From Rodentibacter caecimuris (lineage in GTDB: Bacteria; Pseudomonadota; Gammaproteobacteria; Enterobacterales; Pasteurellaceae), in NCBI RefSeq assembly GCF_001019715.1, contig NZ_BBXJ01000001.1, forward strand, positions 1,984,001-2,048,000: a stretch of DNA of 64,000 nucleotides, read 5' to 3'. Under the pieces are notes generated by a model that was not told the DNA's origin, searched no databases, and was given only the letters and a program-made list of their open reading frames with translations. Made by a program: the position numbers and the translations under genes. Position 1 is the stretch's first letter. Each line of letters begins with the position of its first letter. Below are positions 2,715-18,673 of this stretch, in pieces.

Positions 2715-3179
2715 TTAGTTTAGTTTTTGTGGATCTATTTTGGTTTTCGTATTAGTTTTAATTGTCGGATCAGCTTTTTGTAAAGCATAGTTTAATACTT
2801 TTCCATTTCTGACAAGAATATCTAAAGTTTTAGTCATTGAGCTTTGTTTAATATTATTCTGAAAATCAGAGAGAGAGCCAGTCATATAGGTAGGAGATTC
2901 AAACTGCATTTTAGTATGGAAGTAATTCCATTTTGTATCTTTTTCATTTAACACAAGTTTCATATTTGGTTCACCGAACATAGCGATTAACTGTTGCTCA
3001 GTAGTTTTACCTTTGATGATTTTTGGCACTAGGTTTTCGTTAAAGTCATTTCCAAACTCATTTGTTTGAACGTTCGTTGATGCTTTTTGTATATCTTGAA
3101 AAACTTGCGAGTTATAAGGCGATTGGATACAACCAGCTAATAGCAAAGATACAGCACTGATAAGGAATAGTTTTTTCAT
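2715..3179 (-). CDS. Prophage-encoded lipoprotein with BamE/SmpA-like region
   Basis: A 154-residue lipoprotein precursor. The signal peptide MKKLFLISAVSLLLAGC has a clean lipobox (LAGC), so the mature N-terminus would be a lipidated Cys at about residue 17. The stretch GKTTEQQLIAMFGEPNMKLV resembles the SmpA/BamE-like fold seen in many small outer-membrane lipoproteins. It is the only gene on the reverse strand in the prophage part and has its own upstream region. That is the pattern of a moron, a gene expressed from the prophage for the host's benefit. The residue after Cys is Ile, giving no inner-membrane retention signal. Confidence 0.75.
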   Translation of the reverse strand: MKKLFLISAVSLLLAGCIQSPYNSQVFQDIQKASTNVQTNEFGNDFNENLVPKIIKGKTTEQQLIAMFGEPNMKLVLNEKDTKWNYFHTKMQFESPTYMTGSLSDFQNNIKQSSMTKTLDILVRNGKVLNYALQKADPTIKTNTKTKIDPQKLN

Positions 3180-3242: not shown

Positions 3243-3258
3243 AGTGATCTAAATCACA
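3243..3258. promoter_or_regulatory. CRP-type binding site
   Basis: AGTGATCTAAATCACA matches the CRP dyad TGTGA-N6-TCACA with one mismatch, and the T/A-rich flanks also fit. It lies between the lipoprotein gene (reverse) and the first C4-like/KilA-N unit (forward). Possible -35 and -10 boxes (TTGATA at 3239, TATACA at about 3261) surround it, so it could affect either direction. Confidence 0.55.
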
Positions 3259-3281: not shown

Positions 3282-3310
3282 CCACCTTTACAAGGTGGGA
3301 TTTTTATTTT
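3282..3310 (+). terminator. Intrinsic terminator or attenuator
   Basis: CCACCTT / AAGGTGG forms a tight hairpin followed by GATTTTTATTTT. It lies directly downstream of the candidate promoter/CRP site, so transcripts starting there would be short unless antiterminated. Confidence 0.6.
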
Positions 3311-3355
3311 AGTATCTCTGTTAAGGTCTCAAAACCTAATACAGTAAGCGGAAAT

Positions 3356-3388
3356 CCGCGCCCGATAGCATAGCGGTTTTTTTATGCC
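3356..3388 (+). terminator. Intrinsic terminator before the first C4-like element
   Basis: CCGC ... GCGG followed by seven T residues and ATGCC. A very similar ending (GCGGTC, six T, ATGCC) precedes the second C4-like element near 10497-10511, so this block is part of the repeated layout. Confidence 0.55.
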
Positions 3389-3454: not shown

Positions 3455-3549
3455 GCCGAGAGGGCGAGGAATACAATACCCGAAAGGGGAATAACTCCAG
3501 CCGACTTACTGCGGTTTTTGAGCCTCTCGGCGCCACTCTCAAAAGTGGC
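3455..3549 (+). ncRNA. C4-like antisense RNA element 1 (upstream of KilA-N gene 3581)
   Basis: A closing stem of 9 bp (3455-3463 with 3523-3531) encloses a CCC-GAAA-GGG hairpin (3479-3488) and the conserved string AATACAATACCCG. Inside, CTTACTG (3505-3511) is complementary to CAGTAAG (3565-3571), which contains part of the ribosome-binding site of the gene at 3581. TTTGAG (3517-3522) is complementary to CTCAAA at 3554-3559. A 3' hairpin (GCCACT/AGTGGC) shows a second CTCAAA in its loop (3538-3543). Layout and position resemble C4 antisense RNA of phages P1 and P7, which blocks antirepressor translation. The family assignment is from memory of that motif and needs a covariance-model check. Confidence 0.75.
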
Positions 3550-3580
3550 TAATCTCAAATAAAACAGTAAGGACAGTCCC

Positions 3581-4189
3581 ATGACTACTCAATTATCAAT
3601 TCTTAACAATTCTATCCGTACTTTTGAAAATTTATTTTCTTTAACAGACTTACATAAAGCAAGTGGCGGTGAAAATAAACATAAACCAACGTTTTTCTTA
3701 CGTCTAGATCAAACTAAGGATCTTATTGCTGAAATTGAAGTAAATACCGAGTTGCAGATCTGTAACTCGGTAAAAGTGATTCACGGAGGACCAAATTCAG
3801 GAACCTATGCCTGCGAAGAACTTGTTTTAGCCTATGCAACTTGGATCAGCCCGAAATTCCACTTAGTCGTATTACGTGCTTTTCTAAATATGCACAAAAA
3901 TGAGCAGTTGCAAAAAACGCAACAACTTGCTTTGCTTAAGCCTCAAATTGATCCGAATGAATTAAAAACATTATTAAAAATCTATCAATATGCTAATCGT
4001 TGGAAAGAATTTCAGCAAGCGATAGGCAACTGTGGTGAAACCTCAAATGATGTATTAAAACAAGAAATTGCGACATTATGCTCGCATTGTGGAGATAATG
4101 ATGGCTATCTTTTTATCTTTAGCCCAAATGTTGAAAGAGATGTACAGCAAGCAGGCGAGCTATTAATGCGATTAGTAAAAAACCAATAA
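3581..4189 (+). CDS. KilA-N domain protein, putative antirepressor 1
   Basis: A 202-residue protein whose first ~105 residues are a KilA-N domain (FSLTDLHKASGG, then GTYACEELVLAYATWISPKFHLVVLRAF). KilA-N is a DNA-binding fold in phage antirepressors and regulators. The C-terminal half has four cysteines/histidines in CSHCGDNDG and adjoining positions and is otherwise unassigned. AAGGA at 3569-3573 is a good ribosome-binding site, and it lies in the region targeted by the upstream C4-like RNA. By analogy with P1 ant the protein may trigger induction by disabling a repressor. That role is inferred. Confidence 0.8.
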   Translation: MTTQLSILNNSIRTFENLFSLTDLHKASGGENKHKPTFFLRLDQTKDLIAEIEVNTELQICNSVKVIHGGPNSGTYACEELVLAYATWISPKFHLVVLRAFLNMHKNEQLQKTQQLALLKPQIDPNELKTLLKIYQYANRWKEFQQAIGNCGETSNDVLKQEIATLCSHCGDNDGYLFIFSPNVERDVQQAGELLMRLVKNQ

Positions 4190-7520: not shown

Positions 7521-8459
7521 ATGACAGATAACAAAACAGAAAGCAAAGAAAAAAAACTAACGCCGATAGAACAACGAAAAGTCGATATCAAACATTATAT
7601 TGGTAGTGCAGGTATCCAAAGCCGAATTAAAAGTTTGCTCTCAGATCCAAACAAGAAAGAGAAATTTGCAGCCACATTACTCAATGTGGCGCTTGATGAT
7701 TCGCTTGTCTATTGTACCCCTGAAAGCATTGTGAAGTCCGGTTTACAAGCGGCAGAATTAGACTTGCCACTCAATAAAAATATGGGGCTTGCTTATATCG
7801 TTAAGTACAAAAAAGATGCCGAATTTCAGATTGGCTACAAAGGATGGCAATTATTAGCCAAACGTGCCGGCATTAATTTACGTGCGACACCTATTTTTGA
7901 CTGCGATCAATTTGAAATGGTAAGCGATGGATTTGACACTGTCGTCAAACATATCCCTGATGTTGATAACCAAAAAGATTATGAACCGGCTTGGGTTGAA
8001 GGTCATCTCCGTGGCGTTTTGGTTTCCACAAAAGAAAACAATGAAATTTCTCACCGCTTTGTGAGTTTTGGCAAAATCCTACAAATTGCCGGAGTCAGCC
8101 CAAGCAAGAAAAATGGCAGCTATTCGCCTTACACCTTGTGGAATTTGGAAATGTACATTGGGAAAGCCATTAAATATGTTCTCAGTAAAATGCCAATGGA
8201 AGAACGTCAGGAACAAATCGCAAGAGCGGTTGAAATTGAAAATGGAAACGACAAATACCGCATTGATGAAATGGACAAGCAAGAGGGCGGCAAAAAAGAA
8301 GAGGATAACATCATTACAGTTGTTGATGAGGAAACCTTTGAACAATGCAAACAAAACATCATCAACGGTGAAACCACACTACAAGAATTGTGTGATAGTG
8401 GGATGTATGAGTTCAGCAAAGAACAGTATGACGAATTGGAGAAGTTGGAGAAACTATAA
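7521..8459 (+). CDS. recT: RecT-family single-strand annealing protein
   Basis: A 312-residue protein of the RecT type. It contains the family region ALDDSLVYCTPESIVKSGLQAAELDLPLN, then GLAYIVKYKKDAEFQIGYKGWQLLAKRAG, and HRFVSFGKI further on. RecT anneals complementary single strands produced by a partner 5'-3' exonuclease; the partner here is the YqaJ-type nuclease at 11554. The C-terminal ~60 residues are acidic and probably mediate partner or SSB contacts. GAGGTGAAAA precedes the ATG. The two recombination genes are separated by more than 3 kb, including a toxin-antitoxin pair and a KilA-N unit. Confidence 0.9.
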   Translation: MTDNKTESKEKKLTPIEQRKVDIKHYIGSAGIQSRIKSLLSDPNKKEKFAATLLNVALDDSLVYCTPESIVKSGLQAAELDLPLNKNMGLAYIVKYKKDAEFQIGYKGWQLLAKRAGINLRATPIFDCDQFEMVSDGFDTVVKHIPDVDNQKDYEPAWVEGHLRGVLVSTKENNEISHRFVSFGKILQIAGVSPSKKNGSYSPYTLWNLEMYIGKAIKYVLSKMPMEERQEQIARAVEIENGNDKYRIDEMDKQEGGKKEEDNIITVVDEETFEQCKQNIINGETTLQELCDSGMYEFSKEQYDELEKLEKL

Positions 8460-8534
8460 CGTCAGAAATTCTTATTCTTTATTTAAAATTAAAAATTAAG
8501 TACTATAACCACACTAGTCAAAAGAGGAAAATCA

Positions 8535-9092
8535 ATGCTCATCACTCACAATAGAGAAAAATTGTTACAAGTAATTACTTTTTTTTCTCAAAATGTTGAA
8601 AAGTTAGGGAAAATAAAGCTCTTTAAGTTGCTTTATTTCCTTGATTTTGAGCATTACAAACAAGTAGGGCGTTCCGTAACAGGGCTTGATTATTCTGCTT
8701 GGAAAATGGGACCTGTACCTGTCGATTTACATGAAGAAATTAAACAGCCAGAAGCCGATTTTCTAGCTAAAATCAAAATTGAACAAATTCCCATCCGTAA
8801 AGGAAGACAAGAAATGCTGAAATTTAATGCCTTGTCTGAATTTGATCAAACCCATTTTTCTAAACGAGAATTAAAAATACTTAATACATTAGCACAGCAA
8901 TATAAAAATGCATTTGCTGATGATATGATCGAAGCAACCCACCTTGAACGTTTACCGTGGCATCAAATCTATGAAGTTGAAGGCAAAAAGAAAGAAATAA
9001 TTCCTTATGAGTTAGCATTACCAAGCCAAAATAGGGAGTCAATGCACAAGGACAGTATTGAACGTCTAGCACTGCTTGAGGTGTTAAAGTAA
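8535..9092 (+). CDS. Panacea (DUF4065/SocA-like) antitoxin
   Basis: A 185-residue protein with the Panacea signature KLLYFLDFEHYKQVGRSVTGLDYSAWKMGPVP (residues about 30-61). Panacea domains neutralise diverse toxins in PanAT systems, and related SocA acts as a proteolytic adaptor. The stop overlaps the start of the next gene (TAATG at 9090-9094), the usual tight coupling of a toxin-antitoxin pair. The 75 bases upstream, unlike most gaps here, contain an A+T-rich stretch with a possible -10 (TATAAC), so the pair may have its own promoter. Confidence 0.8.
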   Translation: MLITHNREKLLQVITFFSQNVEKLGKIKLFKLLYFLDFEHYKQVGRSVTGLDYSAWKMGPVPVDLHEEIKQPEADFLAKIKIEQIPIRKGRQEMLKFNALSEFDQTHFSKRELKILNTLAQQYKNAFADDMIEATHLERLPWHQIYEVEGKKKEIIPYELALPSQNRESMHKDSIERLALLEVLK

Positions 9093-9502
9093 TGCTTCAG
9101 TTGGGTTCAATCTTATTTCATCCTAAATTCAAGTTTAATGATGGCGGAGAGCGTGATAAATACCTAATTATTTTGGGTATGACATCACAAAAATTGATTG
9201 TAGCTAAAACCACTTCAAAGGGGTGGAGATATACCCTTGAATATGGTTGTCAGTTAAATACGCATCAAGCATTCTTTTTGCCACAAAATAGTAACCCTAT
9301 ACTGAGTAAAAATACTTGGATTTGTTTTGATGAATTTTATGAACTTGATAAAAATGAATTGGGCAATCGAATAGGTAATTCTGAATTATTTCATTGTGGA
9401 ATATTAGTTAATGAACATCTAAAATATATTCAACAATGTGCATTGCAATCAGACGATATTTCAGCACACCAAGAGCTAATTATTCGACAATCACTAATCT
9501 AA
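9092..9502 (+). CDS. Putative toxin partner of the Panacea antitoxin
   Basis: A 136-residue protein fused at the start to the Panacea stop (TAATG). The N-terminal pattern LGSILFHPKFKFNDGGERDKYLIILG recalls the first strands of PemK/MazF-like toxins (GDIxxVxF...KxRPxxIL), but the rest diverges. I consider it a distant PemK-like or unrelated toxin. Its role is inferred from the coupling and order of PanAT loci. No signal peptide or membrane segment is present. Confidence 0.6.
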   Translation: MLQLGSILFHPKFKFNDGGERDKYLIILGMTSQKLIVAKTTSKGWRYTLEYGCQLNTHQAFFLPQNSNPILSKNTWICFDEFYELDKNELGNRIGNSELFHCGILVNEHLKYIQQCALQSDDISAHQELIIRQSLI

Positions 9503-9506
9503 ACAT

Positions 9507-9587
9507 TTGACACCCACCGCCCTTTATTCTAGACTATGCCTACTTTCAACAGAAAGTCGGCAAGCCACAATTAAGTGGCTTTTTTTG
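9507..9587 (+). ncRNA. Promoter plus two-hairpin short transcription unit (candidate small RNA)
   Basis: TTGACA (9507-9512) and TAGACT (9530-9535) are separated by 17 bases, a near-consensus promoter. Only about 50 bases later AGCCAC/GTGGCT followed by seven T forms an intrinsic terminator (9562-9587). A first stem ACTTTC/GAAAGT lies between. The unit would make a short RNA, or a leader for the gene at 9610 if read through. Confidence 0.5.
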
Positions 9588-9609
9588 TATCTGAATTTTG
9601 AGGCGTGTT

Positions 9610-10407
9610 ATGACAGAACCATTTACAGTAATCGATGAGAATATGAAATTACAAATTTACTTACATAATGATAAACCAGTGGAGTTATCCACCTTATGTC
9701 AAAGTTTAGATGGCATTTCAAAAGAATATTCACGCTTTATTCAAAACTCTACACCAGAACAAAATTTACAACCTTGTGATAGTAACATCTACGTTACACA
9801 AATTACCAAAGGTAGCATTATTGTCGAGTTAGGAACTTATGTTGCCGCAACTTACACACTTATTGAACATAGCAATGCTATTTTTGAGTTTGGAGAACGT
9901 CTTGCTCAAACATACGGCTGGCTACAAGGAAAGCGACCACAGCCCGACAATATAAATGTAAGCGAATTGCGCCATCTAAGCCACGCCTTAGAACCTGTTG
10001 CAAATGACCCAAAAGCAAGCATTTCTATCGGCTCAATCAAAGTTGATGGTGGTATTCATATTCACTTTGAAGCCGACAATATGAAAGCGAATGCATTACA
10101 GCATCTAATCGGCAAGAAAATGGATGAAATGAAAGAACCGATTGTCGGATTGCAAAAAGGTTGTGTAATGCAATTAGCCGTTACAGCTGCAGATAAACAG
10201 ATCGACAAAGCTATTATCGAAGCCTTTACTAAAAAAGCGATTAAAGTGAGTTTTGAAACAAACGAGCTTAAACAGACGATGGTAATGCGAGAACACCCCT
10301 ACCACAAACTCTTTATTGTTGATGTAATGGTTCACACGGTAGACGACAAAATCGTGCTTTACCACATCAAAAATTTAATTGATATTTTAGATAAAAATGA
10401 AGTCTAA
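9610..10407 (+). CDS. Phage hypothetical protein, 265 residues
   Basis: The ATG at 9610 is preferred (TTGAGGCGTG upstream); a TTG at 9598 extends the frame by four residues. The protein has no signal peptide. The region ITKGSIIVELGTYVAATYTLIEHSNAIFEFGERLAQTYGWLQGK looks like a strand followed by a long amphipathic helix. The C-terminal half has strand-rich, adhesion-free character with a lysine-rich helix. I recognise no family. Its end is about 115 bases upstream of the second C4-like element, so it and the KilA-N gene may form one regulatory cassette. Confidence 0.6.
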   Translation: MTEPFTVIDENMKLQIYLHNDKPVELSTLCQSLDGISKEYSRFIQNSTPEQNLQPCDSNIYVTQITKGSIIVELGTYVAATYTLIEHSNAIFEFGERLAQTYGWLQGKRPQPDNINVSELRHLSHALEPVANDPKASISIGSIKVDGGIHIHFEADNMKANALQHLIGKKMDEMKEPIVGLQKGCVMQLAVTAADKQIDKAIIEAFTKKAIKVSFETNELKQTMVMREHPYHKLFIVDVMVHTVDDKIVLYHIKNLIDILDKNEV

Positions 10408-10524
10408 TTTGACAACCCCAACACTTTATACTACTATCCGCCCCAAGGTGTCGAAACCTTTTTCAAGTGGCGGTAGTAAACGGATCGCCAAAGTGCGGTC
10501 TTTTTTATGCCGAAATCTCGTTAA

Positions 10525-10624
10525 GTCGAGAGGGCGACTAATACAATACCCGCAAGGGAAATACGTCCAGCCTAACCACTTGAAGGCTTTCGAACCTCTC
10601 GGCACCATTTGTCGAAAAATGGTG
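10525..10624 (+). ncRNA. C4-like antisense RNA element 2 (upstream of KilA-N gene 10656)
   Basis: The layout is the same as element 1: a 9-bp closing stem (10525-10533 with 10595-10603, one G-U pair), AATACAATACCCG, and a CCC-GCAA-GGG hairpin. The antisense blocks differ but stay matched to their own target. CCACTTGA (10576-10583) is complementary to TCAAGTGG (10639-10646) at the ribosome-binding site of the 10656 gene. TTTCGA (10588-10593) is complementary to TCGAAA (10630-10635). The 3' hairpin (CACCATTT/AAATGGTG) again carries the second-block target TCGAAA, at 10612-10617. This co-variation with element 1 is the main evidence for function. Confidence 0.75.
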
Positions 10625-10655
10625 AATTATCGAAAATATCAAGTGGAGAGTCAAA

Positions 10656-11348
10656 ATGACAAATATCATCACCGCCGATTACAACGGCACTCAAGTTTTC
10701 TTCCAAGATGACGCATATCTTAATGCAACGGCTATTGCAAAACATTTTAATAAACGTCCTAATGACTGGCTAACGTTACCGACAACTCAAGAATATATTG
10801 AAACCCTTTGCAAAAAGACCGAAACCAGAAAATCTGGTAACGCTGCCAAAGTAGGGAAATCCCACTTCGTAAAAACAATCAAAGGTGGTAAAGATTTATC
10901 TCAACAAGGCACTTGGCTACACCGTCGTCTTGCTGTTCCATTTGCTCGTTGGTTAAATGTTGAATTTGCTATTTGGTGTGATGAACAAATTGAAAAAATT
11001 CTAATTGAGAAAAATCAGCCAAAACAACTCGCCTTGCCCGAGCCGGAAAAGAAATTCAAGTTTGAATTTACCGAGTACGAACTTCAACTACTGCCGTGGA
11101 TATGGTTTATCGCCTTACGAGGCACAGAAACTTGCCGAATGATTTATCCGGCAATGGAAACTATCGGTTCAAAATATTCCGGTGCAATCTACGGACAAGC
11201 CTACGAATATAAGCACACTATTCGGGAAGTTCATAAGCTACTGAAACGCCTTACAGCCGATTTCAAATACGACTATGAGAGTAACTGGCGAGTGCTAAAA
11301 CACCTCGAGAATTACAACCCGAAATCTAATAACTACCAAGTAATCTAA
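10656..11348 (+). CDS. KilA-N domain protein, putative antirepressor 2
   Basis: A 230-residue protein. Residues about 1-120 are KilA-N (DDAYLNATAIAKHFNKRPNDWL, then GTWLHRRLAVPFARWLNVEFAIWCDEQIEKIL). The C-terminal ~90 residues are a separate domain (YELQLLPWIWFIALRGTETCRMIYPAMETIGSKYSGA...) unlike that of the first KilA-N protein. GGAG at 10645-10648 is the ribosome-binding site and sits in the antisense target. The two KilA-N proteins are only distantly alike, so they are probably separate switches, not recent duplicates. Confidence 0.8.
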   Translation: MTNIITADYNGTQVFFQDDAYLNATAIAKHFNKRPNDWLTLPTTQEYIETLCKKTETRKSGNAAKVGKSHFVKTIKGGKDLSQQGTWLHRRLAVPFARWLNVEFAIWCDEQIEKILIEKNQPKQLALPEPEKKFKFEFTEYELQLLPWIWFIALRGTETCRMIYPAMETIGSKYSGAIYGQAYEYKHTIREVHKLLKRLTADFKYDYESNWRVLKHLENYNPKSNNYQVI

Positions 11349-11364
11349 AACTTAATCAAAACCG

Positions 11365-11404
11365 ACCGCACTTTTCCCCGTGAAAATCGTGTGGCGGTTT
11401 CTTG
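11365..11404 (+). terminator. Terminator-like hairpin before the small ORF at 11434
   Basis: ACCGC ... GCGGT pairing followed by TTCTTG; the 5' arm contains an uptake signal (11365-11373). The T tract is imperfect, so the strength is unclear. Confidence 0.4.
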
Positions 11405-11433
11405 CACCCAAATTTCAGCAAAAGGAAGAAAAA

Positions 11434-11544
11434 ATGTTCAAGAAAGGTTTAAAAATTGTGCTTGCCGTGTTTGTGATTATCAGCGCATATCAACTGGATC
11501 TCACCCACGACTACGATGGGAAAATTTCTCACATTCAACAATAA
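11434..11544 (+). CDS. Very small phage membrane peptide
   Basis: A 36-residue ORF, MFKKGLKIVLAVFVIISAYQ followed by a polar tail LDLTHDYDGKISHIQQ. One hydrophobic segment is flanked by N-terminal lysines, so it should sit in the inner membrane with the tail outside. AAGGAAGAAAAA precedes the ATG, and it ends 10 bases before the exonuclease gene, making co-translation likely. The function is unknown. It is short but has a sound start signal. Confidence 0.55.
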   Translation: MFKKGLKIVLAVFVIISAYQLDLTHDYDGKISHIQQ

Positions 11545-11553
11545 GGAATAACG

Positions 11554-12198
11554 ATGTACCAATTCAAAGCCAGATGTTCAGGTCTTGCTGACTTAATGCC
11601 ACAGAAGAGAGGCGGAGAAGGACTTTCCGACACCGCCAAAAGTGCGGTCAGAAAGATCGCTAAATTCGATCTGTTCGGTTATCAAGATTTTGAAGGCAAC
11701 AAATACACCGAAAAAGGGAATCTTCTGGAAGAACAAGCCATTAAATTAAGTGGCAGAAAACGAGGCTTGCCCCTCAAGAAAAACACTGAACGCCGAGAGA
11801 ATGAATGGATCACGGGAGAGTGTGATATTTACGTTCCCTCTCGCAAGCTCATTATTGATACAAAATGCTCGTGGGATATTGGCACTCACCCGTTCTTTAC
11901 AGACGAAGCCGAAGATAAAGCGAAAAAAGCCGGTTATGACATTCAAATGCAAGGCTATATGTGGCTATGGGATTGTGAAGAAGCACAAATTGATTTTGTC
12001 CTCTTCCCTACTCCTTACGAAATGCTCAGTAGTTATGATAGCCCCGAACGCTACATTGATTTAGTCGAACAAATTCCGCAAGACAAACGGATCACTACCG
12101 TGACCGTCAAACGTGATAACGCCATCATCGACAAAATCAAAGAACGTGTTAGTGCTGCCCAAGAATATTATCAACAGCTCATTCAGGAAATGAGCTAA
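11554..12198 (+). CDS. YqaJ/lambda-Exo-type recombinase nuclease
   Basis: A 214-residue protein with the PD-(D/E)XK layout of YqaJ nucleases: GNLLEEQAI near residue 55, ITGECDIY near 91, and IIDTKCS near 106 (the D-x-K element). These enzymes resect double-stranded ends 5'-3' to give single strands for a RecT partner, here the gene at 7521. An uptake signal lies at 11640-11648. The start has AAGGAATAACG upstream. Length agrees with the family. Confidence 0.88.
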   Translation: MYQFKARCSGLADLMPQKRGGEGLSDTAKSAVRKIAKFDLFGYQDFEGNKYTEKGNLLEEQAIKLSGRKRGLPLKKNTERRENEWITGECDIYVPSRKLIIDTKCSWDIGTHPFFTDEAEDKAKKAGYDIQMQGYMWLWDCEEAQIDFVLFPTPYEMLSSYDSPERYIDLVEQIPQDKRITTVTVKRDNAIIDKIKERVSAAQEYYQQLIQEMS

Positions 12199-12217
12199 TC
12201 CCATTCTGAACCACACC

Positions 12218-12241
12218 GCCCACTTAACCGTGGGCTTTTTT
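12218..12241 (+). terminator. Intrinsic terminator after the exonuclease gene
   Basis: GCCCAC / GTGGGC with TTAACC loop and six T, ending about 15 bases before the next ATG. Confidence 0.8.
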
Positions 12242-12255
12242 ATAGGACAAACAAA

Positions 12256-12912
12256 ATGCAAAAGAAATACGAACTGTTGAAAGATGACACCAAAGAATAT
12301 TTGGGCAGAACGCTATATCGCATTAAAGCCCTAATCTCTTTTGGTGCAGTAGTTGCCGGCGAACTTGGCGGCTATATCGAAGCAGAGAAAAATTTAGATC
12401 AATCTGGCAACGCTTGGGTATGTGGCAACGCTCGGGTATTTGGCAACGCTGAGGTATATGGCAACGCTCGGGTATATGGCAACGCTCGGGTATTTGGCAA
12501 CGCTGAGGTATATGGCAACGCTGAGGTATATGGCAACGCTGAGGTATATGGCAACGCTTGGGTATATGGCAACGCTTGGGTATGTGGCAACGCTCGGGTA
12601 TTTGGCAACGCTCGGGTATATGGCAACGCTCGGGTATATGGCAACGCTCGGGTATATGGCAACGCTCGGGTTAGTTCTTGCGCCATTGTTTCCGAGCGAA
12701 AAATGATTTTCTGGGCGAGTAATGTCGGTACCGAGAACGGTACACTCACAGTGTTTAATGGCAAGGATGACTTAATCGTTACAAGAGGTTGTTTTACCGG
12801 CACAGTCGATGAGTTTTTAGCAAAATCGGCGAAAGTACATGACGAGAAAACCAAACGCGAGTATCAACTATTGATCGAAGTGGCGAAGAGCAGAATTTTA
12901 GGACAAGGATAA
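12256..12912 (+). CDS. Hexapeptide-repeat (left-handed beta-helix-like) phage protein
   Basis: A 218-residue protein in three parts. The N-terminal ~50 residues (KKYELLKDDTKEYLGRTLYRIKAL...GELGGYIEAEKNLDQS) are followed by fifteen uninterrupted six-residue repeats of the form GNAxVz at residues 51-140. The C-terminal ~75 residues contain FNGKDDLIVTRGCFTGTVDEFLAKSA. Repeats of this period with a small residue and a valine build left-handed parallel beta-helices, as in hexapeptide acyltransferases, but no catalytic His is obvious. The function is unknown; it may be a structural or binding protein. Confidence 0.75.
   Translation: MQKKYELLKDDTKEYLGRTLYRIKALISFGAVVAGELGGYIEAEKNLDQSGNAWVCGNARVFGNAEVYGNARVYGNARVFGNAEVYGNAEVYGNAEVYGNAWVYGNAWVCGNARVFGNARVYGNARVYGNARVYGNARVSSCAIVSERKMIFWASNVGTENGTLTVFNGKDDLIVTRGCFTGTVDEFLAKSAKVHDEKTKREYQLLIEVAKSRILGQG
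12406..12675 (+). repeat. Fifteen tandem 18-bp repeats inside the hexapeptide gene
   Basis: Unit GGCAACGCT-NNN-GTA-TNT repeated 15 times without indels. Variation is confined to codon 4 (CGG, GAG or TGG) and the middle base of codon 6 (TAT, TTT or TGT); the last unit ends GTT AGT. All other positions are identical between copies, so expansion or gene conversion is recent. The 18-bp period keeps the frame when copies are lost or gained. Confidence 0.95.
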
Positions 12913-12923
12913 GGATAAGAAAA

Positions 12924-13241
12924 ATGAACATAAATGAAACGCTACAAGAGCGTGAAGAAACGCACGGGAATTTCCATACCGGTGCACTTATCTTCAGCGA
13001 TATTTTAAAGCATATCGAAAAATCCAAAAATCTTGATAGCACGCACAAATATGCCATCACGATGATTGCGACAAAACTGGCCCGAATATTAAACGGCAAT
13101 CCGCACGAAGTCGATCACTGGCGTGATATTGCAGGTTATGCAACGCTAGGCGGACGATTAGATATACCGGAAGAATCGTTATCACCGCAACCGCTCAATG
13201 CGTTTGTTGAGTTGCCGGTAGTTAGTCAAACTCGCTCTTAA
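12924..13241 (+). CDS. DUF6378-like phage protein
   Basis: A 105-residue protein with the features of the phage family that has TLxERExTHGNF at the start and an EVDHWRDIAGYATLGGRL segment near residue 53. The spacing and the His/Asp residues suggest a compact helical fold related to nucleotide-handling MazG-like proteins, but activity is not established. The stop codon lies inside the palindromic terminator that follows. Confidence 0.65.
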   Translation: MNINETLQEREETHGNFHTGALIFSDILKHIEKSKNLDSTHKYAITMIATKLARILNGNPHEVDHWRDIAGYATLGGRLDIPEESLSPQPLNAFVELPVVSQTRS

Positions 13242-13256
13242 TTAAGAGCATTTTTT
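13234..13256 (+). terminator. Palindromic terminator overlapping the DUF6378 stop
   Basis: GCTCTTAATTAAGAGC is a perfect 16-base palindrome that includes the upstream stop codon, followed by A and six T; the rdgC ribosome-binding site is 5 bases further. Confidence 0.75.
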
Positions 13257-13270
13257 ATGAGGAATAAATT

Positions 13271-14176
13271 ATGTTTTGGTTTAAAAATGCCATTATCTAT
13301 CGCTTAACAAAAGCATTAGATTTTTCAAATCTTGAACACGCATTACAAGAATGTAAATTCGTTGAATGTAGCGCAAATGAGGCGAGTAAATTTGGTTGGA
13401 CAAATCCGCTTGCAACAAGCGAACAGCTGTTTTTTAACGGCAACGGATATATTTTACTTGTTGCTCAAAAAGAAGAGAAAATCTTGCCGACAAGCGTTAT
13501 TCAAAAAGAAACTGATTCTCGCATTTCCGCCTTAGAGGAAAAAGAACAGCGGAAACTCAAGAAAACAGAGAAGCAGATAATCAAAGATGATGTCGTTGCA
13601 ACATTACTTCCCCGTGCATTCAGTAAATATCAGCATATGGCACTTCTAATTGATGTTGCACGTCAACTTATTTATGTTGATACAGCCTCAGCGAAGCGCG
13701 CCGAAGATGTGTTGGCTTTGTTGCGTAAATCTCTCGGTTCATTACCTGCTGTTCCGGTTAGCTTTGTGTGTAACCCGGCAGAAACAATGACAAGCTGGAT
13801 CGGTGGTCGAATGCCGGACTGGTTGATGTTGCAGGAAGAATGCAAATTAAGGTCGATCTATGCTGACGGGCAAGTGATATTTAAACATCAGGACTTAGAA
13901 AGCGAAGAGGTTTATGGATTGCTGCGAGCTAAAAATGTTGTCACGAAATTAGCACTAGATTGGGAAGATCACATCAGTTTTGCACTAAGTGAAACCGGCT
14001 CGCTTTCTAAAATTAAGTTCGCTGATGTTATTCGGGAGAAAAATGACGACATTCTCAAAGAAGATGTAGCTCAACGCTTTGACGCGGATTTCTTCTTGAT
14101 GACATCAGAGCTAGGACAGCTTTTCGATAATTTGACGACCGAGTTTTGTGGGCTTAAACAATCAGACGAAGAATAG
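13271..14176 (+). CDS. rdgC: RdgC-like recombination-associated protein
   Basis: A 301-residue protein with the RdgC start MFWFKNAIIYRLT, the KFGWTNPL region near residue 40, and LLPRAFSKYQ near 114. The length equals the bacterial family (about 300). RdgC forms a ring around duplex DNA and limits RecA filament formation and exchange. A phage copy inside a RecT/exonuclease operon may favour the phage's own annealing pathway or modulate RecA-dependent induction. GAGGAATAAATT precedes the ATG. The call is confident; the purpose in the phage is inferred. Confidence 0.9.
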   Translation: MFWFKNAIIYRLTKALDFSNLEHALQECKFVECSANEASKFGWTNPLATSEQLFFNGNGYILLVAQKEEKILPTSVIQKETDSRISALEEKEQRKLKKTEKQIIKDDVVATLLPRAFSKYQHMALLIDVARQLIYVDTASAKRAEDVLALLRKSLGSLPAVPVSFVCNPAETMTSWIGGRMPDWLMLQEECKLRSIYADGQVIFKHQDLESEEVYGLLRAKNVVTKLALDWEDHISFALSETGSLSKIKFADVIREKNDDILKEDVAQRFDADFFLMTSELGQLFDNLTTEFCGLKQSDEE

Positions 14177-14205
14177 CAACTTGCTAAAATATTTTGAGTT
14201 TAACT

Positions 14206-14238
14206 AAACCGCTCTTAGGGGCGGTTTTGTTTTTAAGA
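14206..14238 (+). terminator. Intrinsic terminator after rdgC
   Basis: AAACCGC / GCGGTTT stem, then TTGTTTTT, directly followed by the AAGAGG ribosome-binding site of the next gene. Confidence 0.75.
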
Positions 14239-14246
14239 GGTGAATT

Positions 14247-14510
14247 ATGAGAAAGATGATTGCAGAATTTCATTTTGAAGATAATAAAAGTGTGCGGTAT
14301 TTGACGAATTTACACATAAATAAACAAGATGGCTTTAAAGTTGTTCGCATAATAGAGAATAATGTTATTGAGAAATACGAGTTGCTAGAAGAATTATTTG
14401 ATGATGAAACTATTCAGTTTTTACTTCTATGTCGAAACAAAACCCCAAAAAGATTTGAGGCTCTTATTAAAAATCTGAATGAAAGTATTTCAGGAAATAA
14501 TGAATATTAG
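14247..14510 (+). CDS. Small phage protein, unknown function
   Basis: An 87-residue protein (MRKMIAEFHFEDNKSVRYLTNLHIN...) with strands in the first half and a helix rich in Glu/Leu in the second. AAGAGGTGAATT precedes the ATG. Its stop codon (TAG at 14508-14510) is part of the stem of the next terminator. No family recognised. Confidence 0.6.
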   Translation: MRKMIAEFHFEDNKSVRYLTNLHINKQDGFKVVRIIENNVIEKYELLEELFDDETIQFLLLCRNKTPKRFEALIKNLNESISGNNEY

Positions 14511-14540
14511 ACCGCCTACTTTCAATGGGCGGTCTTTTTT
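14509..14540 (+). terminator. Intrinsic terminator between two small phage genes
   Basis: AGACCGCC / GGCGGTCT stem followed by six T. Confidence 0.85.
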
Positions 14541-14579
14541 CAGGGAGTAAATGCGGAAAAGTAAAAAGAGAGGGAGAAA

Positions 14580-14732
14580 ATGAAAGGTAACTTTGATGAA
14601 TGCTTTCTTGAAAGTATTAAACGGCACAAACTGACAGTAATAGAAAACACCGAACACACCAAAGTTTTTCACTTCGCCGATCCGAACACTATTGCACTGT
14701 CTTGCACGATTATCTATGCGGCGAATATCTAA
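14580..14732 (+). CDS. Very small phage protein (50 residues)
   Basis: ATG at 14580 with AGGGAGAAA upstream, encoding MKGNFDECFLESIKRHKLTV and continuing through FHFADPNTIALSCTIIYAANI. The last part is strand-like with a serine/cysteine pair. There is no membrane segment by usual length. The strong ribosome-binding site and phage-typical spacing support a real gene; function unknown. Confidence 0.5.
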   Translation: MKGNFDECFLESIKRHKLTVIENTEHTKVFHFADPNTIALSCTIIYAANI

Positions 14733-14824
14733 ATTTGATAAAGAAAAAATGAAAGCTGTATTTCACCCAAATGTAATAGAGGCTGTAATACATACAATAG
14801 ATTTAACTGAAAGAGGTATAAATT

Positions 14825-15499
14825 ATGCTAACAGAAGAAATTAAACAAAAATTATTAAATGGTGCTTATGGTGTTACTAAAAATGGTACTAAAGTTAAGT
14901 ATATTGGTAAATTAATGGGGAATACAAAATATCCTTTAGTATTTGCAACATATAACAAGAATGGTGATTATGAAAATACAATCTGTTATACAAAAAATTT
15001 TACCTATTGTTTAGATTCAGAATTTGTACATGATATTGTAGGTTTATGGCAAGATAAACCAGAACCTTTCAACTTAGAACGAGCATTAACAGGACAAGGT
15101 ATTCAATACAAAGAAGGTGATACGGACTATCCTTCTCATATTGTTGGCAAATCATATATTACAGATGAGTATTATTTAGAAATTTCAGAAGGTGAATGTG
15201 TAAGTATTACTTTAAATGATTTACAAAAAAATTATGTAATGTGGAAAGAGCCTGAAAAATCACAGGCTCAATATAAAGAATTGCCGAAACCAATTACGGA
15301 GTTCGGGGATTTAGAAAAGGCTTGGTTTGTTGGATCTATGCCTAGCTGTCTTTTCCCAGCTTATTATTCTTCAAAAAATTTTAATGATTTAGATGTTAAA
15401 TTACGTTTACAAAATAAGCAGTTATTTGCAACAGAACAACACGCTCAACTTTGGTGCGATGCTTTGAGTGGCAAACTCAAAGTCGCCATCGTTGATTAA
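14825..15499 (+). CDS. Phage hypothetical protein, 224 residues
   Basis: The protein starts MLTEEIKQKLLNGAYGVTKNGTKVKYIG and is rich in Asn/Tyr/Lys in its first 150 residues, in contrast to the more typical last 60 (ATEQHAQLWCDALSGKLKVAIVD). The two halves also differ in codon choice: the first part is strongly A/T-ending. It may therefore be a fusion or hybrid of an imported N-terminal part with a phage-common C-terminal motif. GAGGTATAAATT precedes the ATG. No function recognised. Confidence 0.6.
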   Translation: MLTEEIKQKLLNGAYGVTKNGTKVKYIGKLMGNTKYPLVFATYNKNGDYENTICYTKNFTYCLDSEFVHDIVGLWQDKPEPFNLERALTGQGIQYKEGDTDYPSHIVGKSYITDEYYLEISEGECVSITLNDLQKNYVMWKEPEKSQAQYKELPKPITEFGDLEKAWFVGSMPSCLFPAYYSSKNFNDLDVKLRLQNKQLFATEQHAQLWCDALSGKLKVAIVD

Positions 15500-15575
15500 T
15501 CCCTGATTTGCCAATCAAATTCCGTTGTTTTTGATTAACAACGGAGTTTGTTTATCAACAATGAGAGACTAACCG

Positions 15576-15606
15576 ACCGCTTACAGAAATGTGAGCGGTT
15601 TTATTT
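15576..15606 (+). terminator. Intrinsic terminator before the C5-methylase gene
   Basis: ACCGCTTACA / TGTGAGCGGT (one G-T pair) with a GAAA loop, then TTTATTTTATGG. A second stem CCGTTGT/ACAACGG lies just upstream near 15522-15545. Confidence 0.75.
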
Positions 15607-15618
15607 TATGGAGAGAAA

Positions 15619-17016
15619 ATGTTTACCTACGGCTCAATCTGTTCGGGCATTGAGGCGGCAAGTGTAGCGTGGAAAGGATTGGGAAAGCCATTATGGTTTT
15701 CTGAAATTGAACCGTTCCCTTGCGCTGTACTTGCTCACCACTTTCCTGATATTCCAAATCTTGGCGATATGACCGCCTTACCTGAAAAAATCCTTAATCG
15801 TGAAGTGCCGGCACCGGATGTTCTAGTTGGTGGCACTCCTTGCCAAGCCTTTTCAGTTGCAGGCAAACGGGAAAGTTTAAACGATGACAGAGGGAATTTA
15901 ACCCTTGCTTTAATTCATATTTTAGAGGCTATTGATTATGTCAGAAACCAAGACGGACAACCACCTTGCATCCTCGTGTGGGAAAACGTACCGGGTGTCT
16001 TATCCACTTCGGACAACGCATTCGGATACTTTTTGGCTGGGCTGGTTCAAGAAAGTCAGCCATTACAACCAACAGGGAAACGATGGACAAACTCTGGTTA
16101 TGTGCATTCAAGAAGAACTGTCGCGTGGCGAACCTTCGATGCTCAATACTTCGGACTTGCCCAACGACGTAAAAGAGTGTTTGTTGTGGCAAGTGCTCGA
16201 AGACGAAGTATCGCAGAAATACTCATTGAGCAAAAAAGCGTGTCAGGGGATATTGAACCGAGCAAAATTACGCAACAAAACGCTACCATTGATTTTAGAA
16301 AAGGCTCTCTTGCAAGCGGTGAATCAGTAACAGGCACACTACTCGCAAACTGCGGTACTAAATGGCTTGGAAATCAAGAGGCCTTTAGTGGCGACTTCTT
16401 TATCGTTAAAAATGGTTTTTCTTCATTTTCTCAGGAAACCATCAGTGGAAAATTGCGTTCTAGTGGTGGAGATTGTGGTGGCGGGAGTGAAACTTTTATT
16501 GTTCACGGTACGCAAGACCCGATTATTAGCAATACGACCGCACATTGTTTGGGACGAAATGGCGGGCAGGAAAATATCGTGTTTGATATTGCACATCGTT
16601 CCGATGTTGTGAGATTACAGGAATGCGACACAACCCCCACACTGACAGCAAGAATGGGAACAGGCGGTAATAATGTTCCTTGTGTTGCTCTTGCAGGCAA
16701 TACGATTGGGCAAAAACCTGAAAACGGCGGTAACGGCAATGGTTTTGATGAAAGCGGGGTAAGCTATACCTTAACAAGCACCGATGTTCATGCCGTGACT
16801 ACAGCTACAGTTATTAGAAAACTTACTCCAATTGAATGTGAACGGCTACAAGGCTTTCCGGATAACTGGACGAAAATCCCGTATCGCAATAAACCTGCGG
16901 AAGACTGTCCTGATAGTCCACGCTATAAAGCGATTGGAAACTCAATGGCCGTGCCGGTAATGCGGTGGATTGGAGAAAAGATGATTAATTACTTAAACAA
17001 GCCTAGCGAAAGCTAG
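15619..17016 (+). CDS. Phage DNA (cytosine-5) methyltransferase
   Basis: A 465-residue enzyme with the C5-methylase motifs in order: motif I variant GSICSGIEAAS (residues 5-15), catalytic GGTPCQAFS with Cys75, ENV at 122-124, QRRKRVF at 182-188, a target-recognition region of about 200 residues, then LTPIECERLQGFPDNW and AIGNSMAVPV near the C-terminus. It transfers methyl groups to cytosine C5, probably to evade host restriction. No endonuclease gene is adjacent, so it is a solitary phage enzyme. The recognition region is long, so the target may be more than one sequence. The stop codon is inside the following terminator. Confidence 0.95.
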   Translation: MFTYGSICSGIEAASVAWKGLGKPLWFSEIEPFPCAVLAHHFPDIPNLGDMTALPEKILNREVPAPDVLVGGTPCQAFSVAGKRESLNDDRGNLTLALIHILEAIDYVRNQDGQPPCILVWENVPGVLSTSDNAFGYFLAGLVQESQPLQPTGKRWTNSGYVHSRRTVAWRTFDAQYFGLAQRRKRVFVVASARRRSIAEILIEQKSVSGDIEPSKITQQNATIDFRKGSLASGESVTGTLLANCGTKWLGNQEAFSGDFFIVKNGFSSFSQETISGKLRSSGGDCGGGSETFIVHGTQDPIISNTTAHCLGRNGGQENIVFDIAHRSDVVRLQECDTTPTLTARMGTGGNNVPCVALAGNTIGQKPENGGNGNGFDESGVSYTLTSTDVHAVTTATVIRKLTPIECERLQGFPDNWTKIPYRNKPAEDCPDSPRYKAIGNSMAVPVMRWIGEKMINYLNKPSES

Positions 17017-17023
17017 GTTTTTT
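17002..17023 (+). terminator. Intrinsic terminator overlapping the methylase stop codon
   Basis: CCTAGC-GAAA-GCTAGG followed by six T; the TAG stop lies in the 3' arm. Confidence 0.85.
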
Positions 17024-17036
17024 ATTGGAGCAGAAA

Positions 17037-17297: not shown

Positions 17298-17306
17298 GGA
17301 GAGAGT

Positions 17307-17606
17307 ATGGAAGAAACCCTAACAATCAAACAGGTTGCAAAATACTTAAACCTTAAAGAAAGAACCGTTCGAAACCATATTTATGATTGGGGATTTTTCA
17401 AAATGACAGGTTCTCGCGTTTGGCGTATTCATAAGTCCGATCTTGATCTACTCAAAAAACGATCTGATAATGCTGATAGATTAGCTTTGTCGGTCGAAGA
17501 GGTACAACTATGTCGATCTACAAAAGAAACGAAAATGGTCCGTGGTGGGTTGATCTCGCAACCCCAAGCGGTAAAAGAATTAGACGCTCAACTGGCACGA
17601 CTATAA
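17307..17606 (+). CDS. Excisionase-like helix-turn-helix protein
   Basis: A 99-residue protein with an N-terminal MerR/excisionase-type winged helix: LTIKQVAKYLNLKERTVRNHIYDWGFFKMTGSRVWRIHKSDLD (residues 5-48). Such proteins direct excision or act as small regulators. The last 97 bases overlap the integrase start in another frame, so the C-terminal ~32 residues are constrained by the integrase's first residues. A 99-residue length with this overlap is unusual. The functional part is probably the first ~70 residues. Confidence 0.7.
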   Translation: MEETLTIKQVAKYLNLKERTVRNHIYDWGFFKMTGSRVWRIHKSDLDLLKKRSDNADRLALSVEEVQLCRSTKETKMVRGGLISQPQAVKELDAQLARL

Positions 17607-18565
17607 AAAAGGAAGCGCAACAATATCACGATAGGCTTAAAGCTGAAATGTGGAAAATTGATAAACTTGATGCTCCGCCAGAGTATATTTTTGAAGAAGC
17701 ATTACTGCATTATGTGCGCTCTGCTGAAGGTCAAAAAGATACTGCAACTAAAAAACGGCACGCCATCTACTGGCGTAGCAAATTCTCAGGACGAGTATTA
17801 AGCTCTTTAACAACACAGGAAATTTTACAACATATTCCCACCAAGAATATGAACACTAAAAAACCTCTTGCTAATGCTACCCAAAACAAATATATCAAAT
17901 CTATTTCTTTGATCTTGAATCTTGCACATAAAGCGGGGATACTAGACAAAGTGCCCTATATCCCTAAGAAAAAAGAGCCGCCAATCCGAGTGCGTTGGAT
18001 CACTAAAGAACAAGCACGAGAATTAATTGGCAAACTTAGCCAAGATTGGATGCGAGCAATATGCTCATTTGCTTTAATGACAGGAGCAAGGCGTACCGAA
18101 ATCCTCACTTTAACATGGGATAAAATCGACTTCGTGCGTAAAGTAGCATTGGTTACTAACGATGTCGCTAAGTCTGGAAAAGCTCGCTCATTATTACTCA
18201 ATGATGAAGCCATCACCTTACTTAAATCCATTCGTAACAGGCATTCCAAATATGTGTTTGTCGGTAGAAACAGTAATCCGCTAACGGATATCAACCGAAA
18301 GTCTTTCACGCTAGCAACGAAAAAATGCTTTCTAGTTGATTTCCATTTCCACGATTTGCGGCATACTTGGGCAAGCTGGCACGTTCAAGCAGGTACACCG
18401 CTATTCACGCTCAAAGAATTAGGCGGTTGGGAAACTCTCGAAATGGTCAAGAAATATGCTCATTTGAATGCGGATCATTTGTTGGAACACGCAAACAAAG
18501 TAGAATTTCACGGCACATTTACGACACACCCAAAGCCTAAGACACATTTAAAACTTGTTGCGTAA
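17510..18565 (+). CDS. int: Tyrosine-family phage integrase
   Basis: A 351-residue site-specific recombinase. The N-terminal arm (IYKRNENGPWWVDLATPSGKR) precedes a SAM-like core-binding domain (about 60-150) and the catalytic domain. Catalytic residues visible: Arg194 in TGARRTEILTL, His281 and Arg284 in HDLRH, Trp307 in GGW and the nucleophile Tyr316 in KKYAH. It reads toward the tRNA-Arg gene 31 bases further, the standard int-attachment layout. GAGGT at 17499-17503 supports the ATG at 17510 despite its long overlap with the preceding gene. Confidence 0.95.
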   Translation: MSIYKRNENGPWWVDLATPSGKRIRRSTGTTIKKEAQQYHDRLKAEMWKIDKLDAPPEYIFEEALLHYVRSAEGQKDTATKKRHAIYWRSKFSGRVLSSLTTQEILQHIPTKNMNTKKPLANATQNKYIKSISLILNLAHKAGILDKVPYIPKKKEPPIRVRWITKEQARELIGKLSQDWMRAICSFALMTGARRTEILTLTWDKIDFVRKVALVTNDVAKSGKARSLLLNDEAITLLKSIRNRHSKYVFVGRNSNPLTDINRKSFTLATKKCFLVDFHFHDLRHTWASWHVQAGTPLFTLKELGGWETLEMVKKYAHLNADHLLEHANKVEFHGTFTTHPKPKTHLKLVA

Positions 18566-18596
18566 CATATAACTTTTTGAAAAATAAGACTTTTAA

Positions 18597-18673
<77 letters not shown>

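What the first reader, a model, noticed from the sequence alone, without database searches (positions are those of the whole stretch)
3455..3571. Two C4-like antisense RNAs, each matched to its own KilA-N gene
Elements at 3455-3549 and 10525-10624 share a closing stem, the AATACAATACCCG string and a CCC-GNRA-GGG hairpin, and each ends just ahead of a KilA-N gene. Their antisense blocks have changed together with their targets. CTTACTG pairs with CAGTAAG at the ribosome-binding site of gene 3581. CCACTTGA pairs with TCAAGTGG at that of gene 10656. The blocks do not cross-match, so one prophage would hold two orthogonal antirepressor switches. C4 is established for P1/P7; a paired, insulated set beside KilA-N genes in a Pasteurellaceae phage is, to my knowledge, not described.
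Basis: partly seen in the sequence, partly recalled or inferred. Interest (0 to 1): 0.88.

Follow-up and report, generated by a model that had tools for sequence, protein, structure and literature searches.

The report
Two C4-type antirepressor antisense RNA switches
One bacterial prophage carries two small RNA switches, each with two short antisense blocks that match the start of its own antirepressor gene, and relatives show that antisense and target have changed together many times.

Summary
Both elements are hits to Rfam RF02221 (sRNA-Xcc1; 81.3 and 67.1 bits, cut-off 53), not to the C4 model, yet each unit is laid out like phage P1 c4: promoter, upstream target copy, terminator-like hairpin, antisense RNA, target at the ribosome-binding site, antirepressor gene. 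There are two antisense blocks, not one: the P3 loop against the RBS and the J3/1 strand against a site ahead of it. Over 156 distinct relatives both match their own leader far better than permuted ones (z 20.7 to 28.3); 29 of 50 sister pairs changed loop and target together without cross-match. Both units lie in one 47.7-kb prophage. Downstream genes are antirepressors of many families, in four cases SymE toxins. Held papers treat RF02221 as a virulence or orphan sRNA; I found none linking it to C4. So: C4-type by mechanism, another RNA family by membership. Weak points: insulation of RNA 1 is modest by duplex energy, the same element 2 recurs elsewhere in the genome, processing is untested, and the terminator switch is modelled only and fits element 1, not 2.

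The parts
3287..3315 (+). sigma-70-like promoter of unit 1 (TTTACA, 17, TAGTAT)
   Evidence: 9 of 12; same place in relatives: 75 of 111 have 9 of 12 or better just before a1, mononucleotide shuffles 4.9%
3324..3337 (+). a1-like hairpin; CTCAAAA (3328-3334) complements J3/1 of RNA 1
   Evidence: J3/1 versus upstream window z 20.8
3342..3348 (+). b1-like upstream copy of the target, CAGTAAG, followed by CGG
   Evidence: P3 versus upstream window z 23.1
3348..3383 (+). GCGG / CCGC / GCGG-T7: alternative hairpins, antiterminator 3348-3359 or terminator 3356-3376
   Evidence: modelled terminator probability 0.53 free, 0.99 with b1-CGG blocked; not found by the standard terminator scan, whose loop limit is 8 nt
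3455..3531 (+). RF02221-type antisense RNA 1 (P1, P2, P3)
   Evidence: 81.3 bits, E 2.4e-13 (model match 3455-3539)
3505..3511 (+). antisense block 1 (P3 loop) CTTACTG
3515..3522 (+). antisense block 2 (J3/1) TTTTTGAG
3532..3549 (+). 3' hairpin with a2 target CTCAAAA (3538-3544); starts with GCCA, an RCC(A) signal directly after P1
3554..3559 (+). second, linear copy of the a2 target, CTCAAA
3565..3571 (+). b2 target CAGTAAG at the RBS of gene 3581
3581..4189 (+). KilA-N protein, probable antirepressor 1
10409..10437 (+). sigma-70-like promoter of unit 2 (TTGACA, 17, TACTAT)
   Evidence: 10 of 12
10445..10460 (+). a1-like hairpin; TCGAAA (10451-10456) complements J3/1 of RNA 2
10463..10470 (+). 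b1-like upstream copy of the target, TCAAGTGG, followed by CGG
10482..10507 (+). terminator-like hairpin (10482-10501) and T-run
   Evidence: formed with or without b1 blocked in the model (0.91 and 0.99, on the identical element L004)
10525..10603 (+). RF02221-type antisense RNA 2
   Evidence: 67.1 bits, E 5.7e-10 (model match 10525-10611)
10576..10583 (+). antisense block 1 (P3 loop) CCACTTGA
10588..10594 (+). antisense block 2 (J3/1) TTTCGAA
10604..10623 (+). 3' hairpin with a2 target TCGAAA (10612-10617)
10630..10635 (+). second, linear copy of the a2 target, TCGAAA
10639..10646 (+). b2 target TCAAGTGG at the RBS of gene 10656
10656..11348 (+). KilA-N + P22_AR_C protein, probable antirepressor 2
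17510..18565 (+). integrase; prophage end
18595..18641 (.). attR: 47-bp perfect repeat overlapping tRNA-Arg; the other copy lies 47,656 bp upstream, outside the window
   Evidence: tRNA, Arg by the records matched

Best explanation
Each locus is a self-contained C4-type antirepressor switch. A promoter directly ahead of the upstream target copy makes a leader that holds, in order, a1, b1, a terminator-like hairpin, the antisense RNA, a2, b2/RBS and the antirepressor. Inferred: the roughly 77-79-nt RNA is cut out of the read-through transcript (RNase P at the 5' end, guided by the RCC(A) that follows P1) and acts in trans. Shown by comparison: its P3 loop is matched to the RBS (b2) and its J3/1 strand to the sites ahead of it (a2). 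Inferred: this two-point pairing shuts off translation of the KilA-N antirepressor and so keeps the prophage silent. The same RNA is predicted to pair more strongly with the a1/b1 copy near the start of the leader; in many relatives, element 1 included, this would release a terminator and so damp the whole unit. The two units of this prophage carry different codes, so in principle each gene answers to its own RNA.
For: RF02221 hits above cut-off. P3-RBS z 28.3, P3-upstream 23.1, J3/1-downstream 20.7, J3/1-upstream 20.8 on 156 elements, 10,000 permutations each; at least one block matches downstream by 6 nt or more in 139 of 156, both in 97. The match ends a median 9 nt before the start codon, 105 of 110 within 0-15 nt. 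Sister pairs: 29 of 50 co-changed without cross-match. Within 12 genomes, P3-RBS run of 7 or more: own 32 of 47, cross 10 of 154. P1 phage record: same order a1, b1, c4, a2, b2, ORF. RCC after P1 in 136 of 156, shifted controls 7, 6 and 2. Promoter before a1: 75 of 111 at 9 of 12 or better, mononucleotide shuffles 4.9%. Terminator-like hairpin upstream: 83 of 156, shuffles 42 of 1560. Mean duplex energy own upstream -25.1, own downstream -19.2, cross upstream -18.4, cross downstream -14.0 kcal/mol. Downstream genes: Bro-N, P22_AR, KilA-N, Rha, AntA.
Against: No expression, processing or pairing data for this genome. 17 of 156 elements match neither block by 6 nt downstream and 14 of 156 neither upstream. 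21 of 50 independent sister pairs fail the strict criterion; over all 346 overlapping pairs 164 do not have both own matches. Only 4 of 20 neighbour groups are free of any 6-nt cross-match with all own matches present, and the window pair is not among the four. Permutations ignore phylogeny, and the SD-complementary letters are shared widely. RNA 1 against the downstream leader of gene 2 is -14.0 against -15.3 for its own. In the model the terminator of element 2 does not switch (0.99 free, 0.91 blocked). RNAduplex ignores internal structure. 15 of 20 small downstream proteins looked at one by one have no Pfam family, so 'antirepressor' does not cover all targets.
Confidence: 0.86

Rival explanations
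1. Cis-acting leader: the element is never cut out; the P3 loop and J3/1 fold onto the RBS of the same transcript, and the upstream copy competes for them. A riboswitch-like leader, not a trans-acting RNA.
For: The matched RBS site lies about 20-50 nt after the element on the same strand in most relatives; the upstream copy is predicted to bind more strongly (137 of 156), so it could be a cis competitor.
Against: An 88-nt sRNA-Xcc1 was seen by Northern blot and RACE in Xanthomonas (PMC2996969, passages) and an 89-nt sRNA-Xcc1 is in a list of expressed EHEC RNAs (PMC5331693, one table row). RCC after P1 in 136 of 156 fits RNase P release. In G012 the first of two tandem elements matches the RBS beyond the second.
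Confidence: 0.12
2. Transcription attenuation is the main step, as described for P4 CI RNA with seqA and seqC: the RNA binds the upstream copy, which prevents the GCGG-CCGC antiterminator and favours the terminator; RBS pairing is secondary.
For: Upstream site holds or is followed by CGG in 110 of 132, downstream site followed by CGG in 1 of 121; modelled terminator probability 0.34 free, 0.76 with the site blocked, 0.32 with a control block, n = 76; at least 2 of 3 CGG bases paired with the RNA in 100 of 110 best duplexes; up stronger than down in 137 of 156. P4 precedent as told in PMC4825925 (passage).
Against: Element 2 does not switch in the model; 42 of 76 rise by more than 0.2, 4 of 76 fall; blocking the CGG opens the rival hairpin by design. 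The RBS site co-varies at least as strongly (z 28.3 against 23.1), so it is under selection too.
Confidence: 0.35
3. The upstream copy is a sponge: a short terminated RNA (IsrK-like) soaks up the antisense RNA and turns the antirepressor on.
For: Promoter-like and terminator-like sequences flank the upstream copy; IsrK activates anrP translation in Gifsy-1 (PMC4825925, passages); the a1b1 region of P1 gives a sub-threshold isrK hit (35.1 bits, cut-off 50).
Against: No isrK or c4-a1b1 hit in the two window leaders; no expression data. Compatible with the best explanation as an extra layer.
Confidence: 0.25
4. Chance or shared ancestry: matches reflect the common SD complement and common descent.
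For: The CTT / AAG part is shared by many loops and RBSs (seen); permutations ignore relatedness.
Against: Permuted partners carry similar SD letters and score 4.50 against 6.58 nt; sister elements with near-identical leaders differ mainly in loop and target, e.g. L002/L003, L055/L056 and the two of L166.
Confidence: 0.02

Closest known systems
C4 antisense RNA of phages P1 and P7 (Rfam RF01695, clan CL00128) with c4-a1b1 (RF03163)
   Same: Order a1, b1, c4, a2, b2, operon with antirepressor; three-helix RNA; P3 loop against the RBS, J3/1 strand against a site just after the RNA, read directly in the P1 sequence; RCC after P1.
   Different: No model-level match either way: C4 not in the window units, RF02221 not in the P1 c4 region, all at E up to 10; shorter P1 stem; P2 with conserved AATACAATACCC-GNRA-GGG; RF02221 is listed without a clan.
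sRNA-Xcc1 (Rfam RF02221)
   Same: Both elements are members by covariance model.
   Different: Described in the held papers as an Xcc, integron or Xylella vesicle sRNA with virulence suggested (passages); here members sit before antirepressors and match their RBSs.
P4 CI RNA with seqA and seqC; Gifsy-1 IsrK
   Same: Antisense RNA flanked by an upstream and a downstream target (P4), as told in PMC4825925 (passage); like IsrK, an upstream segment that activates or controls an antirepressor operon.
   Different: No RF01394 hit in the window leaders; P4 was not compared by sequence here.
sar antisense RNA of P22
   Same: Antisense control of an antirepressor (PMC12197685, passage).
   Different: Not compared by sequence; the passage does not mention two blocks or an upstream copy.
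c4-2 (Rfam RF02944)
   Same: By name another C4-type family.
   Different: No hit at E up to 10 in the window leaders; I saw only its name, in a table of PMC11701678.

Membership tests
sRNA-Xcc1 RF02221 | Covariance-model score above the gathering cut-off | tested here: met
   81.3 and 67.1 bits, cut-off 53
C4 RF01695 | Covariance-model score above cut-off | tested here: not met
   no hit at E up to 10 in either region; the P1 control scores 68.8
C4 RF01695 | P1 closing stem with two hairpins P2 and P3 | tested here: met
   RF02221 model alignment; single-strand folds show P1, P3 and the GNRA hairpin
C4 RF01695 | Two antisense blocks complementary to a and b sites of the next gene's leader, b at the RBS | tested here: met
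C4 RF01695 | Additional a1/b1 target copy upstream of the RNA | tested here: met
C4 RF01695 | Antirepressor encoded downstream | tested here: met
   KilA-N and KilA-N + P22_AR_C by Pfam; antirepressor activity itself not tested
C4 RF01695 | 5' end made by RNase P | not testable with these tools
   only the signal (RCC after P1, 136 of 156) was seen
C4 RF01695 | Trans-acting repression and immunity | not testable with these tools
   needs reporters or lysogens
isrK RF01394 / c4-a1b1 RF03163 | Covariance-model hit in the upstream segment | tested here: not met
   no hit at E up to 10

The most novel reading that the evidence does not exclude
RF02221 as a whole is a second, independently recognised C4-type class: a modular two-block antisense code with its own promoter, a terminator gated by the RNA itself and an RBS lock, re-coded many times so that one prophage or genome can run several separate switches, and carried over to other targets such as SymE toxins. 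The 'virulence' sRNAs sRNA-Xcc1 and sXF of Xanthomonas and Xylella would then be phage-type switches.
Probability: 0.6. Interest if true: 0.76.

Novelty: new variant of a known kind. Interest (0 to 1): 0.62.

Why it matters
It gives an RNA family that is found in about half of the Pasteurellaceae genomes searched (69 of 140), and is discussed in plant pathogens as a virulence sRNA, a specific and testable mechanism and a readable target rule. It shows antisense and target evolving together in dozens of natural pairs, a ready-made set of two-block RNA switches, and suggests how several prophages in one cell keep their antirepressors apart, or share control where the element is identical.

Tried and rejected
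Filing the elements as C4: rejected, the C4 model does not hit. Filing the upstream segment as isrK or c4-a1b1: no hit. A universal terminator switch: rejected, element 2 and others do not switch in the model. That the finding might straddle two prophages: rejected, 47-bp att repeats bracket one prophage. The Xanthomonas relatives L167 and L169: the upstream site matches, the downstream RBS does not; reported, not explained.

Biases. Elements were found by an exact core pattern or as top-scoring model hits and had to pass my own pattern and P1 filter, so diverged members are under-sampled; the filter recognised 12 of the 28 RF02221 places of G087. Of 232 places, 171 were distinct; 11 with a weak P1 and 4 with short flanks were dropped. 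Permutations treat elements as independent. The promoter control is a mononucleotide shuffle. The first RCC count (138 of 156) came from a stem search that rewarded RCC; it was redone without that reward (136 of 156). A joint count printed was wrong through a script slip and was redone. The terminator model blocks the CGG by design, so its gain is partly built in. 16 of 156 elements had no downstream ORF by my rule. The neighbour test covers the groups I chose and fetched: 23 groups, 3 of which had only one distinct loop; it is not every pair.

Full report
What is there. Rfam places both in RF02221, sRNA-Xcc1, at 81.3 and 67.1 bits against a cut-off of 53. The C4 model does not reach E = 10 in either region, while it scores 68.8 bits on the c4 region of phage P1, where RF02221 in turn is absent at E up to 10. 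The genes are KilA-N (3581) and KilA-N with a P22_AR C-terminal domain (10656).

One prophage. A 47-bp perfect direct repeat lies at 18595-18641, overlapping a tRNA gene, and 47,656 bp upstream. Between the copies lie structural genes and a cI-like repressor on the minus strand (my reading of the ORFs, not a family search), then P-like helicase loader, DNA methyltransferase, NinB, NinG, Q, unit 1, RecT, unit 2, exonuclease, a recombination-associated exonuclease and integrase. The genus is Rodentibacter by inference: contigs of two same-genus genomes (G127, 230,459 bp; G120, 48,185 bp) have the lengths of two named Rodentibacter contigs.

Anatomy of a unit. Promoter-like hexamers end 7-8 nt before a hairpin in both units. 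The hairpin loop (a1) and a run of 7-8 nt soon after it (b1) repeat the target. Then come a terminator-like hairpin with a T-run, the antisense RNA with RCCA directly after P1, a hairpin whose loop holds a2, a linear second copy of a2, b2 at the SD, and the start codon. The P1 record annotates the same order a1, b1, c4, a2, b2, icd/ant, and its sequence shows the P3 loop opposite b2 and the J3/1 strand opposite a2.

Are the matches more than chance. I used 236 loci and the window: own-genome, Pasteurellaceae and class-wide model hits, IMG/VR and GTDB pattern hits, and took out 232 element places, 171 distinct, 156 used. Longest exact complement, own against permuted partners: P3 to RBS window 6.58 against 4.50 nt (z 28.3), P3 to upstream window 6.79 against 5.04 (23.1), J3/1 to downstream 6.22 against 4.51 (20.7), J3/1 to upstream 6.22 against 4.55 (20.8). 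Downstream, both blocks match by 6 nt or more in 97 of 156, one in 42, none in 17; upstream 101, 41 and 14. Of 110 matches with a called start, 105 end 0-15 nt before it, and 95 hold or touch an SD-like triplet.

Relatedness. Among 50 non-overlapping sister pairs with near-identical cores and different loops, 29 changed loop and target together with no cross-match of 6 nt; 21 did not meet that bar. Over all 346 pairs, 182 have both own matches and 138 of those no cross-match. In the window's own genome L002 and L003 share almost the same leader and differ in loop and target.

Insulation. In 12 genomes, P3-RBS runs of 7 nt or more: own 32 of 47, cross 10 of 154 (the places fetched and recognised, e.g. 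12 of 28 in G087). In 20 groups of neighbours within about 50 kb: own 30 of 45, cross 6 of 60, but only 4 of 20 groups are clean by the strict rule, and the window pair is not one of them. For the window pair the loops are distinct at the RBS, yet duplex energies give RNA 1 only a small preference at the downstream sites (-15.3 own, -14.0 other); RNA 2 is clear (-19.1 against -10.8). Element 2 recurs unchanged at two further places of the genome, one on the small contig, so control across prophages is expected there. At least 24 of the 64 genomes with listed places have two within 50 kb of each other (a lower bound, as cut its list).

The upstream copy. It is predicted to bind its RNA more strongly than the RBS does in 137 of 156. 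A likely reason is that the pairing extends into a CGG that goes with b1 in 110 of 132 upstream sites and in 1 of 121 downstream sites. In 76 elements with a terminator-like hairpin, blocking that stretch raises the modelled terminator probability from 0.34 to 0.76, a control block gives 0.32; 42 of 76 rise by more than 0.2 and 4 fall by more than 0.2. Element 1 goes from 0.53 to 0.99, element 2 from 0.99 to 0.91. This is a proposal for many members, not for element 2. P4 CI RNA with seqA and seqC, as told in PMC4825925 (passages), is the precedent.

What is controlled. Of 140 distinct downstream proteins, in two scans of 101 and 39, Bro-N is found in 41, P22_AR_C in 30, P22_AR_N in 22, KilA-N in 19, Rha in 10, ORF6C in 8, AntA in 6 and SymE in 4 (a protein can match several, and some match none: 15 of 20 small ones checked singly). 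The SymE cases are L201, L208, L210 and L233. Their P3 runs downstream are 9, 6, 8 and 8 nt; the 6-nt run of L208 lies between the SD and the start codon rather than over the SD; J3/1 gives 7 nt in all four. Named phages: Aaphi23 carries the element between q and ant with downstream runs of 7 (P3) and 6 (J3/1) nt, Rac-SA53 before ant with 6 and 7.

What is known. Seen as passages: sRNA-Xcc1 was found by Northern blot and RACE as an 88-nt RNA (PMC2996969); Xylella Temecula1 has seven copies, discussed as vesicle and virulence RNAs (PMC12189769); in Xanthomonas integrons it lies upstream of symE and the authors suggest a divergent mechanism (PMC12444791); Weinberg 2010 lists c4 antisense RNA and c4-a1b1 in proteobacteria and phages (PMC2864571), and Acinetobacter has a group of C4-like RNAs with C4-like processing, whose authors cite Pasteurellales among the predicted carriers (PMC5320573); Rfam 15 lists RF02221 and c4-2 among revised structures (PMC11701678); an 89-nt sRNA-Xcc1 is in a table of EHEC RNAs (PMC5331693, column headings not seen). 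Searches for sRNA-Xcc1 alone, C4 antisense RNA, sRNA-Xcc1 with antirepressor or KilA-N and others, C4 with antirepressor, c4-2 and C4 with symE gave no paper that, in what I saw, connects RF02221 with C4. Most listed papers were seen as listings only, and the library holds only CC-licensed papers; the 2011 sRNA-Xcc1 paper is not held, so prior recognition is possible.

Verdict. What it works like: C4, with strong comparative support. What it is a member of: RF02221, not RF01695. Two units close together are common in this family rather than unique to this prophage. The new part is the assignment of mechanism to RF02221, its two-block code, and the upstream copy with its possible terminator switch.

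Noticed in passing
L201, L208, L210, L233: RF02221-type elements directly upstream of SymE-type toxin genes with block matches in the symE leader; suggests a C4-type antitoxin RNA for SymE.
   Followed up: partly
L167, L169 (Xanthomonas): Upstream copy matches the P3 loop by 8 nt but the downstream gene's RBS does not; the target may lie elsewhere or be lost.
   Followed up: no
L287 (G012:C22): Two elements in tandem; the first one's loop matches the RBS beyond the second by 8 nt, the second's loop only by 4.
   Followed up: no
L306 and window 7796-18641: The small second contig of the genome (19,236 bp) is 99.76% identical to the right part of this prophage, element 2 included; a second near-identical prophage or an assembly fork.
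   Followed up: no
G087 (Pasteurellaceae): 28 RF02221 and 27 RF01695 matches in one genome, many with identical scores.
   Followed up: no
G121:C18, G051:C16, G099:C64, G139:C1: True C4 (RF01695) hits that come in pairs about 500 nt apart.
   Followed up: no
3244-3257: GTGATCTAAATCAC palindrome resembling a CRP site (recalled motif) ahead of the minus-strand lipoprotein-like gene 2715-3179 next to unit 1.
   Followed up: no
12256-12912: Protein with many GNARVYGNA-type repeats beside the recombination genes, with long repetitive ORFs on both strands.
   Followed up: no
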